A stretch of DNA of 64,000 nucleotides, taken from Pirellulales bacterium. GTDB lineage: Bacteria; Planctomycetota; Planctomycetia; Pirellulales; Lacipirellulaceae. Below, in pieces: positions 37,475 to 39,055 of the stretch. The stretch's first letter is position 1. Each line of letters opens with the position of its first letter. Location of the stretch: positions 1-64,000 of the forward strand of contig JANQOF010000029.1 of the NCBI GenBank assembly GCA_028279215.1. The letters run 5' to 3'. The translations under genes were made by a program, and so were the position numbers. The notes beneath the pieces were generated by a model. The model was not told the origin of the DNA and did not search any database. It saw only the letters and a list, made by a program, of their open reading frames with translations.

Positions 37475-38260
37475 ATGCTTCCTCGCACTCCCCTGTTTCC
37501 CCACGTCATCGAACTCAATCACCAGGCCCGGCAACGGATCACCTGCAGCGTCTATCTGATTTATGACGACCAGAACCACTGGGCGCTCATGGACATCGGA
37601 TACGAAGACGCAGTCGACGACGTCTTGGAGCTGATTCGCCAACTCGACTTTCCCTTCAGCAAGTGCGTCGGGCTGATCGCCTCGCATGCCGATGTCGATC
37701 ACATTCAAGGCCTAGCCAAGGCGAAGCAGGTGCTTAAAACCAGCATCTACTGCCACCCGAAGGCGGCCGTTCACTTGGAATCGGGCGATCGCATCGCGAC
37801 CTTTGCCGCCATCGAAGCGCAGGGCATCGATTTGGAGATGCCGAAGGTCGAGATCGAGCATCGCGTGGACGAAGGCGATACGATTCAAGTCGGCGACCTA
37901 TTGCTCGAAGTGTGGCATACGCCCGGCCATACCGATGGACAGCTCTCGCTACGCATGGGCAACCTGCTGTTCTCCGGTGATAACATTTTTCGCGACGGCT
38001 CGGTCGGCGCCATCGACGCGCACCACGGCAGCAGCATCCCCGATTTTATTAAGTCGCTCAAACGCATCCAAGAAAGCAACGTCGAGTGGCTCCTCCCCAG
38101 CCACGGCCCTGTATTCCGCAAAGACAACGCCCACATCCAAAAAACAATCGACCGCCTGGAAACCTACCTTCACATGGCCGACTTCGGCACCTGCGCTATC
38201 GACTGGCCGTTGATGGATGCTTGGGAGAAAGAGTTGCTGGAGGGGAAAGGGCCGGAGTGA
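37475..38260 (+). CDS. Metallo-beta-lactamase-fold hydrolase
   Basis: 261 residues. The metal motif is [10 protein letters not shown] (HxDxDH in place of the usual HxHxDH), followed by [31 protein letters not shown] and LLPSHGPVF. Thiol- or ester-hydrolysing activity of the glyoxalase II type is plausible; the substrate is unknown. ATG 37475. The last 23 codons are repeated at 38987-39055, on the far side of a PIN toxin-like locus. Confidence 0.88.
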
Positions 38261-38296
38261 GAACTACTCTGGGAGTGCGAAAGCGTCTCGCCGAAT

Positions 38297-38785
38297 ATGA
38301 CAACTGTCTACCTAGAAACGACCATTCCCAGCTTCTTCTACACCGCGAGAACAGATACTCGCTCGCTTGCACGCCATCGATGGACCCGCCAGTGGTGGGA
38401 CGAAGTCGCTCCCGATTTCGAGTTATTCTCAAGCGACGCAGTCATTGCGGAACTAGACCGGGGAACGATTGAAGAACTGAAGTCTGAGCGAATTTTGCTG
38501 ATCTCACGGCTGCCCCTCCTGGAGGCTACGTCCGACGTCCTCAACGTTGCTAGAATATACGTAGATCGGCTGGTTATGCCCTGCGATGGTGTTGGCGACG
38601 CGCTTCACTTGGCAATAGCATCCCACTACTCGATAGACGTGTTACTTACCTGGAATTGCAAACACTTGGCGAACCCTAACAAGTTTGGCCACATCCATCA
38701 GGTGAACGAGGAGTTAGGCCTCTCCACGCCTTTGCTAACCACCCCGCTGAACTATCTAAGCGAGGACGACACATATGAAGACTGA
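38297..38785 (+). CDS. PIN-domain protein, probable toxin
   Basis: 162 residues with PIN-domain features: YLETTIPSFFY at the start (first acidic residue Glu in place of the usual Asp), SSDAVIAELDRG, a conserved GDALHLAIASHYSIDVLLTW segment (20) carrying an Asp, and NCKHLANPN. PIN proteins are Mg-dependent RNases; VapC-type toxins are the best known. The following gene overlaps it by 11 bases, the usual layout of a toxin-antitoxin pair, although antitoxins more often come first. Confidence 0.8.
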   Translation: MTTVYLETTIPSFFYTARTDTRSLARHRWTRQWWDEVAPDFELFSSDAVIAELDRGTIEELKSERILLISRLPLLEATSDVLNVARIYVDRLVMPCDGVGDALHLAIASHYSIDVLLTWNCKHLANPNKFGHIHQVNEELGLSTPLLTTPLNYLSEDDTYED

Positions 38786-38963
38786 ACCTGCAAACGAAGT
38801 ACGCGTCATCCGTCAGAGTCTCTCTGCAGAGTGTGGAGACGATCTCGCAAGGATTCTCGAGTACTACCGCAGGCATCAAGAAGAGTCGAAAAACTCGGGG
38901 GCACTTCACTTTGTGGATTCACTCTCCTCTGCCACATCGGAGCACAACCGTTCGAGTGCATAA
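38775..38963 (+). CDS. Small partner of the PIN protein, probable antitoxin
   Basis: 62 residues (VRVIRQSLSAECGDDLARIL, EYYRRHQEESKNSG) overlapping the PIN gene by 11 bases. Charged, probably helical, with no recognisable DNA-binding motif. Short downstream partners of PIN genes with this RxxR..EC..D..YY pattern occur in planctomycetes and cyanobacteria in my memory; the antitoxin role is inference. Confidence 0.65.
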   Translation: MKTEPANEVRVIRQSLSAECGDDLARILEYYRRHQEESKNSGALHFVDSLSSATSEHNRSSA

Positions 38964-38986
38964 CAACATGCAGAGTCCCTTGCGTT

Positions 38987-39055
38987 TGCGCCATCGACTG
39001 GCCGCTAATGGATGCGTGGGAGAAGGAGTTGTTGGAGGGGAAAGGGCCGGAGTGA
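38987..39055 (+). pseudogene. Orphan 3' end of an MBL-fold hydrolase gene
   Basis: 69 bases (23 codons including the stop) encode the same residues as the end of the hydrolase gene at 38192-38260, from [20 protein letters not shown] through the stop. The two copies differ at six bases, all synonymous (GCT/GCC, TTG/CTA, GCT/GCG, AAA/AAG, CTG/TTG). No hydrolase sequence precedes it. Confidence 0.92.

What the first reader, a model, noticed from the sequence alone, without database searches (positions are those of the whole stretch)
38192..39055. PIN toxin-like locus inserted behind an MBL hydrolase, with a second, synonymously diverged copy of the hydrolase 3' end
The last 23 codons of the MBL-fold hydrolase gene (38192-38260) occur again at 38987-39055, just beyond a PIN-domain gene and its small overlapping partner. 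The copies differ at six of 69 bases, and every change is synonymous. A recent local duplication would give identical or randomly diverged copies. Purely silent differences mean both copies spent time as the end of a working hydrolase, so one was probably brought in with the toxin-like locus from a diverged relative, replacing the host gene's 3' end and pushing the old end outward. That is how integrative elements behave at tRNA 3' ends, but here in a protein gene and with a cargo of only about 0.7 kb.
Basis: partly seen in the sequence, partly recalled or inferred. Interest (0 to 1): 0.75.

Follow-up and report, generated by a model that had tools for sequence, protein, structure and literature searches.

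The report
Toxin cassette wedged between gene ends
A tiny toxin-like gene pair sits between two slightly different copies of the end of a neighbouring gene, and similar small cassettes sit between copies of other genes' ends in other bacteria, which suggests that they may spread by ordinary DNA recombination without carrying a recombinase of their own.

Summary
The repeat is real: 38192-38260 recurs at 38987-39055 with six differences, all silent, around a VapC-like PIN gene and a small partner. In 53 other genomes with a full-length hydrolase the search found no second end.

The pattern recurs. By a fixed rule 13 of 123 PIN-homologue loci are bracketed by a repeat holding a gene 3' end, against 1 of 252 control ORFs in planctomycete stretches and 6 of 162 in the same records. 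Repeats of any kind are enriched there too. Other small cargo stands in the same position.

In one genus five of nine species have extra SerS ends with at least four kinds of insert; the SerS 3' end and a ParE cassette share a history that the gene body does not. Over 14 pairs, ends differ too silently for plain duplication and decay.

Best reading: a toxin-antitoxin-like cassette flanked by copies of its host gene's end, gained and swapped by homologous recombination. The first duplication is unexplained, and here I cannot show which end is foreign. Nearest known: Neisseria minimal mobile elements, fungal mitochondrial mobile ORFs.

The parts
37475..38260 (+). MBL-fold hydrolase gene (ORF open from GTG 37409); host gene whose 3' end is duplicated
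   Evidence: Pfam Lactamase_B 69.5 bits; full-length orthologues in 53 other genomes
38192..38260 (+). attached copy (c1) of the hydrolase 3' end, with stop codon
38297..38785 (+). PIN/VapC-like protein, 162 aa
   Evidence: Pfam PIN 21.9 bits, just under the 23.6 cut-off; AlphaFold model pLDDT 89 matching FitB/VapC structures
38775..38963 (+). small overlapping partner ORF, 62 aa, candidate antitoxin
   Evidence: similar small ORF after 60 of 131 PIN loci by a loose motif of my own making; no Pfam match
38987..39055 (+). detached copy (c2) of the hydrolase 3' end, with stop codon
   Evidence: encodes the identical 22 residues
27623..29401 (-). second instance: ORF (592 aa) whose last 24 bases with stop recur behind an insert
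27619..27646 (-). second instance, attached 28-base copy
   Evidence: 28 of 28 identical
27045..27464 (-). second instance, cargo ORF of 139 aa with no family match
26993..27020 (-). second instance, detached 28-base copy

Best explanation
The PIN pair is a small toxin-antitoxin-like cassette (about 0.7 kb) standing just behind the stop codon of a host gene and followed by a second copy of that gene's 3' end. The attached copy keeps the host gene whole. The two copies also act as homology arms: ordinary homologous recombination, with one crossover in or upstream of the attached end and one in the detached end, can add, swap, stack or delete the cassette in any genome that has the host gene, whatever lies downstream. 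Such exchanges replace one end by a diverged working allele, which would explain silent differences. Shown: the architecture, its recurrence, a SerS 3' end sharing its history with its cassette but not with its gene body, and one cassette with about the same right-hand junction before different neighbours. Inferred: that recombination is the vehicle here, that the pair works as toxin and antitoxin, and that addiction keeps it between direct repeats. Not explained: the event that first makes the duplication.
For: Gene-3'-end brackets at 13 of 123 PIN loci against 1 of 252 control ORFs and 6 of 162 same-record controls. Protein level: 7 of 167 gene ends facing a PIN recur on its other side, about 0.04 expected from cross-locus pairs. 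SerS in one genus: second ends in five of the nine genomes in which the gene was found (of twelve searched), with different inserts. G271-G413: gene body 12.3% different, 3' end 4.7%, ParE cassette 4.3%; G271-G375: 7.3, 8.5 and 9.9%. Body tree rejected on the 3'-end data, p-AU 0.008. The ParE cassette is followed by PIN plus a third end, by segment X, or by other DNA in three genomes; c2+X is 93% alike in G413 and G421, which carry different cassettes. Pooled pN/pS 0.25, bootstrap 0.17-0.34. VapC-like fold.
Against: Repeats of any kind, not only gene ends, bracket PIN loci often: 43 of 123, against 9 of 252 and 28 of 162. YifB: in sister G431 the ends are 98.3% alike, and in G433 a second end is only 75% alike, as plain duplication and decay predict. 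The detached ends of fumarase G335 and SerS G419 and G375 show decay. At this locus the nearest relative is slightly closer to the attached copy (17 against 19 differences), no relative with the PIN at the hydrolase was found, and identity along the hydrolase to G001 shows no clear breakpoint. The well-studied cases are draft genomes or metagenome assemblies.
Confidence: 0.55

Rival explanations
1. Plain insertion with a long target duplication: some break or strand-transfer event copies part of the gene end around the inserted DNA; the copies start identical, the attached one stays under selection and the detached one decays. No later exchange is needed.
For: YifB G431 ends 98.3% alike, G433 75%; exact copies at window 26993/27619 and in L054; decayed detached ends in G335, G419, G375.
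Against: Pooled differences too silent (p about 1e-5 against one neutral copy, pairs not all independent); replacements in detached GroEL-like, CarB-like and DUF1501-type ends that look natural to my eye; SerS end and cassette share a history that differs from the body.
Confidence: 0.26
2. One-sided capture (homology-facilitated illegitimate recombination): a linear fragment from a relative that already had [gene end + cassette] recombined by homology inside the gene and joined illegitimately within the recipient's gene end. This is.
For: Explains a diverged attached end, a native detached end and a variable start of the detached end. The mechanism is described in three competent species and in E. 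coli conjugation (abstract start of PMC3240628 in the search listing).
Against: Needs a donor with the cassette already beside the gene; about the same right-hand junction of the ParE cassette in three genomes points to homology on that side too.
Confidence: 0.1
3. A site-specific integrase acting in trans uses gene 3' ends as attachment sites and the cassettes are integrase-less passengers, as in cis-mobilizable elements.
For: In the window, L054, L060, L067 and L074 the repeat ends 0-19 bases past the stop codon; stacking at SerS resembles accretion.
Against: Unrelated target genes with no shared core that I could see; copies differ along their length; no integron integrase over its cut-off in the window's genome, though other tyrosine recombinases were not examined.
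Confidence: 0.05
4. The PIN nuclease is itself a homing-type enzyme that cuts empty alleles of the gene end, like the endonucleases of fungal mitochondrial mobile ORFs.
For: Same layout as in PMC3630166; PIN homologues are over-represented between gene ends.
Against: The same layout holds ParE-like, DUF3368, DUF4058 and unknown cargo; VapC-type PIN enzymes act on RNA (general knowledge); targets differ widely.
Confidence: 0.03

Closest known systems
Minimal mobile elements (Neisseria)
   Same: Whole-gene cassettes exchanged between conserved genes by homologous recombination (definition in PMC3082526, passages read)
   Different: A minimal mobile element lies between two conserved genes; here both arms are copies of one gene's end, so downstream synteny is not needed
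Insertion with long target duplication of restriction-modification systems
   Same: Addiction-type genes inserted with long, variable target duplications (PMC3031569, passages read; the 2000 paper by Nobusato and others seen only as a reference entry)
   Different: Here the duplication falls on a gene 3' end with its stop codon, the copies differ mostly silently, and in SerS the ends recombine between species
Fungal mitochondrial mobile ORFs that replace gene C-termini (Allomyces, Glomus)
   Same: Attached inserted C-terminus, cargo ORF, detached native C-terminus (PMC3630166, passages read)
   Different: There LAGLIDADG or GIY-YIG endonucleases are the cargo; here a PIN pair or other small genes in bacterial chromosomes
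VapBC toxin-antitoxin modules
   Same: PIN fold closest to FitB/VapC and a small partner ORF
   Different: The partner lies downstream and matches no Pfam or NCBIfam family; toxicity is untested
Cis-mobilizable elements at gene 3' ends (ICESt type)
   Same: Integrase-less DNA between two copies of a gene 3' end, with accretion (recalled; only search listings seen)
   Different: No shared attachment core that I could see, and many unrelated host genes

Membership tests
Minimal mobile element | Different cassettes at the same place in different strains or species | tested here: met
   Met for SerS: ParE, 342-base, 1171-base and PIN inserts in one genus. Not seen for the hydrolase: no second hydrolase end or PIN was found behind it in the relatives searched
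Minimal mobile element | Flanked by two conserved genes that supply the homology | tested here: not met
   Both flanks are the same gene's end; SerS neighbours directly downstream of the second end differ
Minimal mobile element | Exchange by homologous recombination | tested here: inconclusive
   SerS mosaic, p-AU 0.008; indirect, and not testable at the hydrolase
Insertion with long target duplication | Long variable direct duplication of target around an addiction-type gene, with an empty site in relatives | tested here: met
   28 to 183 bases in the planctomycete 3'-end cases; no second hydrolase end found in 53 other genomes
Insertion with long target duplication | Copies identical at birth | tested here: inconclusive
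   Nearly identical in YifB G431; excess of silent change in the pool
Integron gene cassette | Integron integrase in the genome | tested here: not met
   TIGR02249: 0 of 1 genome over the cut-off; the 14 control genomes also ring only below it
Integron gene cassette | attC site at the cassette end | not tested
   By eye only: some relatives (L034, L036, L057, L085) have attC-like repeats; the window's repeats are protein-coding
VapBC toxin-antitoxin | PIN fold with conserved acidic residues | tested here: met
   Model matches FitB/VapC, TM (query) 0.52-0.60 in the eleven best hits; E7, E52, D101 invariant in 17 sequences; Pfam PIN slightly below cut-off
VapBC toxin-antitoxin | Known antitoxin partner | tested here: not met
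   Partner matches no Pfam or NCBIfam family at E 0.1
VapBC toxin-antitoxin | Growth arrest reversed by partner | not testable with these tools
   needs an experiment
Mitochondrial mobile ORF gene hybrids | Cargo is a homing endonuclease | tested here: not met
   PIN/VapC-like; other cargo ParE, DUF3368, DUF4058
Mitochondrial mobile ORF gene hybrids | Attached end foreign, detached end native | tested here: inconclusive
   Detached copy closer to 19, attached to 5 of 27 relatives, 3 ties; nearest relative the other way

The most novel reading that the evidence does not exclude
A general class of recombinase-free mobile cassettes in bacteria: small addictive gene pairs that carry a copy of their host gene's 3' end, so that the host's own recombination machinery inserts, swaps and stacks them behind conserved genes across species that share the gene but not its surroundings. 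Addiction would explain why cargo held between direct repeats is not lost.
Probability: 0.36. Interest if true: 0.78.

Novelty: new variant of a known kind. Interest (0 to 1): 0.6.

Why it matters
How small toxin-antitoxin loci move without transposase or integrase is an open question. Duplicated gene ends as portable homology arms would answer it for part of them, would give a sequence signature that can be searched for in all genomes, and would warn that the 3' end of a gene such as serS can have a history different from the rest of the gene. Two literature searches returned no paper: toxin-antitoxin with direct repeats, homologous recombination, Planctomycetes and duplication, and toxin-antitoxin with partial duplication, target gene, horizontal transfer and flanking direct repeats, four of five terms. 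A looser one found 88 papers, of which I saw 12 listed, none describing this by title. The library lacks most subscription journals, so this says little.

Tried and rejected
Integron cassette: rejected for this locus (no integron integrase over the cut-off; repeats are protein-coding), although some relatives look like attC arrays by eye. Assembly error: thought unlikely because G412 and G431 share the same second-end offset and three genomes share about the same ParE/c2 junction; I could not map reads. Origin of each copy from single distances: inconclusive. Tandem gene duplication with decay in place: no second full hydrolase among the relatives searched. The first alignment of relatives and the first end table were wrong because loci on the minus strand were not turned; redone. 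One search returned nothing because of a wrong tblastn option; redone. One search used wrong frames for two pairs; corrected.

Rows dropped or discounted. L016 and L025 dropped because the gene end differs in length; 138 PIN centres, 5 duplicates removed, 10 without 500 bases on both sides left out, giving 123. Of the 13 automatic positives I regard L064, L329 and L376 as doubtful and L078 as a terminator duplication; L319, L326, L341, L344 and L358 look positive by eye or by protein comparison but fail the rule, and the controls had no such second look; the 6 control positives lie in four loci; the two in L331 look like further PIN genes; rows for 3' ends, own 13 (11 in L157), PIN-centred 9, random 3; 5' ends 12, 5, 2; mid-gene 27 (all L157), 15, 3; counted as genes. 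The mid-gene rule was looser than the end rules; five of the 14 pairs are SerS, so they are not independent (with one SerS pair only the ratio is 0.20); SerS G419 (frameshift), the gapped GroEL-like and L319 pairs, L313, L054 and the exact pair at window 26993 are not in the pool.

Full report
Observation. The last 69 bases of the MBL-fold hydrolase gene (38192-38260) recur at 38987-39055 with six differences; every difference is synonymous, and both copies end in the same stop codon. The match runs one base past the stop and then ends. A search of the genome as held found no third copy. Between the copies lie a 162-aa PIN-like ORF and a 62-aa ORF that overlaps it. The PIN protein scores 21.9 bits against Pfam PIN, just under the cut-off; its AlphaFold model (pLDDT 89) is nearest to FitB and VapC structures, and E7, E52 and D101 are invariant in 17 homologues. 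A small ORF of the same style follows the PIN gene at 60 of 131 loci, by a loose motif that I made up for the purpose.

Empty sites. Of 59 genomes searched, 54 including the window's own hold a full-length hydrolase; only the window's own gave a second match to the 3' end. Of three other members of the genus, two (G001, G003) have the hydrolase and no PIN at the threshold used, and the third (G002) has no hydrolase match and only a partial PIN match at another locus, L054. The copies are closer to each other (6 differences) than to any of the 27 relatives compared (13 or more). The detached copy is closer than the attached one to 19 relatives, the attached one to 5, with 3 ties and 2 dropped; these relatives are not independent, and the nearest one, G001, goes the other way, 17 against 19. 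So the detached copy has not visibly decayed, but its origin cannot be read from this locus.

Is the silent pattern significant here? About 22% of random single changes in this stretch are silent. By my reading of the relatives, two of the six changes are derived in the detached copy, two in the attached one and two are unclear. Two neutral changes are both silent with probability about 0.05; a mixture in which half of the changes fall on a neutral copy and half on one with omega 0.1 gives 0.012 for all six.

The pattern recurs. Among planctomycete PIN homologues, direct repeats bracket the PIN gene in several loci, and in some the repeats are gene 3' ends: seryl-tRNA synthetase (L067/L102), a fumarase-like lyase (L074/L110), a FabH-like gene (L054, in the same genus as the window, with a partial PIN) and an unnamed gene (L060); in L040 it is a gene start, in L078 and L080 a terminator. 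Gene names here are my reading of the sequences. In 80 named loci from many phyla the same appears at GroEL-like ends (L316, L326, L341), CarB-like ends (L318, L333, L344), a DnaB-like end (L358) and a LarE-like end (L313).

Controls. With one fixed rule, 13 of 123 usable PIN loci are bracketed by a repeat containing a gene 3' end, against 1 of 252 control ORFs in planctomycete stretches (Fisher 3e-6) and 6 of 162 other ORFs in the same records (p 0.03); the latter lie in four loci. Repeats of any kind bracket 43 of 123 PIN loci, 9 of 252 and 28 of 162 controls, so gene ends are only part of the enrichment. At protein level, 7 of 167 gene ends facing a PIN recur on its other side at 30 bits or more, where about 0.04 are expected from pairs taken across loci. 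In an earlier placement test 6 of 43 PINs were bracketed by some repeat, 0.7 expected.

A scan of whole stretches is less clear. Gene 3' ends recurred downstream for two genes in the window's genome outside one tandem-repeat region (both in the window; 459 kb), for eight genes in 679 kb around PIN homologues, six of them convincing to me (L102, L110, L116, L120, L134, L137), and for three genes, all weak, in 800 kb of arbitrary stretches. Gene starts gave one, four and two genes. Mid-gene stretches, under a looser rule, gave none outside the tandem region, ten and three. This scan therefore does not show that 3' ends are special; that rests on the PIN-centred tests and on SerS.

The cargo is not always a PIN pair. 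A ParE-like toxin with a small partner (SerS), a DUF3368 PIN-type protein (YifB/ComM-like gene), a protease-like pair with no Pfam match (a gene of DUF1501 type by my reading) and DUF4058 (MetH-like gene) stand in the same position; in L134 the insert holds several ORFs, one of them a PIN homologue. In the window itself a 139-aa ORF of no known family stands between two exact 28-base copies of a gene end at 26993-27646. So the mechanism is unlikely to be encoded by the PIN protein.

SerS, the informative case. Of twelve genomes of one genus the gene was found in nine. Five of the nine have a second SerS end downstream: G271 (two cassettes, three ends), G419, G375, G421 and G413; G424, G289 and G222 have none in the 6.8-8.6 kb available, and in G423 only 454 bases were available, part of which resembles the ParE cassette. 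The downstream region that starts 54 bases after SerS in G222 starts about 1.95 kb after it in G413, 1.56 kb in G421 and 0.48 kb in G424. G413 and G421 share the detached end plus about 1 kb of following DNA at 93%, yet hold different cassettes before it. The ParE cassette is joined to a second end starting at base 117, 102 and 104 of the last 240 in G271, G413 and G375, but the DNA after that end differs in each.

Mosaicism. Between G271 and G413 the first 1040 bases of SerS differ by 12.3%, the last 235 by 4.7% and the cassette by 4.3%; between G271 and G375 the figures are 7.3, 8.5 and 9.9%. For G271-G413 the body/end contrast has Fisher p 4e-4 (four other pairs were tested: one more is significant, G424-G375, of which G424 has no second end, and three are not), and the body tree is rejected on the 3'-end data with p-AU 0.008. 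The gene end and the cassette therefore appear to share a history that the gene body does not.

Selection on the ends. Over 14 aligned pairs of ends the differences are 65 synonymous and 55 non-synonymous, pN/pS 0.25 (bootstrap over cases 0.17-0.34; 0.20 with a single SerS pair). Duplication with one neutral copy would give 0.53-0.60, and the excess of silent change has p about 1e-5. The pairs are not all independent. Against this, the detached fumarase end carries replacements away from its relatives, SerS G419 has a frameshift and G375 has lost its stop, and the YifB pair is nearly identical in G431, differs at four sites in its sister G412 and is 75% alike in G433. Decay and exchange both seem to occur.

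Reading. I conclude that the window holds one case of a recurrent arrangement: a small, probably addictive cassette behind a host gene, with a second copy of that gene's 3' end beyond it. The two ends can serve as arms for homologous recombination, so that the cassette can move between genomes which share the gene and nothing else at that place. In the window, L054, L060, L067 and L074 the repeat is 28 to 183 bases long and ends 0-19 bases past the stop codon; in L313 it ends 28 past it. What makes the first duplication is open: a filled-in staggered break, one-sided capture, or an unknown enzyme.

Known relatives of the idea. Minimal mobile elements of Neisseria are whole-gene cassettes between two conserved genes, moved by homologous recombination (PMC3082526, passages). 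Restriction-modification genes insert with long variable target duplications (PMC3031569, passages). In fungal mitochondria, mobile ORFs bring an inserted C-terminus and leave the native one downstream (PMC3630166, passages). The present case combines traits of all three, in bacterial chromosomes and with toxin-like cargo. I rate it a new variant of a known kind.

Noticed in passing
window 26993-27646: A 139-aa ORF of no known family (minus strand) stands between two exact 28-base copies of the 3' end of a 592-aa ORF, a second instance of the same architecture in one window.
   Followed up: partly
L102 8159-9953: Three copies of a SerS 3' end with a ParE-like pair and a PIN pair between them; the distal copy is longer than the middle one, so the order of insertion is not simply outward.
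   Followed up: yes
L034, L036, L057, L085: PIN homologues inside what look like attC-bearing cassette arrays; the same toxin family may travel in integrons too. Judged by eye only.
   Followed up: no
window 38960-38986: The bases just before the detached end (gcataacaacatgcag...) resemble the start of an attC site to my eye; the rest of such a site is missing.
   Followed up: no
L060 2153-2183 and L318 4474-4848: The detached gene end is in frame with the small partner ORF and supplies its last residues and stop codon.
   Followed up: no
L078, L080: Two related genomes carry the PIN pair between copies of what looks like an intrinsic terminator hairpin instead of a coding end.
   Followed up: partly
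L040 937-1995: The 5' end of a gene is duplicated around the PIN pair (120 bases, 93%), a mirror image of the 3'-end cases, with another VapC-like ORF just upstream.
   Followed up: partly
L157 (own genome C71:20001-40000): A tandem-repeat gene region; weak matches to an integrase family lie nearby on the same contig.
   Followed up: no
G424 and G375, SerS: The last 235 bases of SerS are much more alike (3.8% different) than the gene body (10.9%) although G424 has no second end, so the SerS 3' end may recombine often or be unusually conserved.
   Followed up: no
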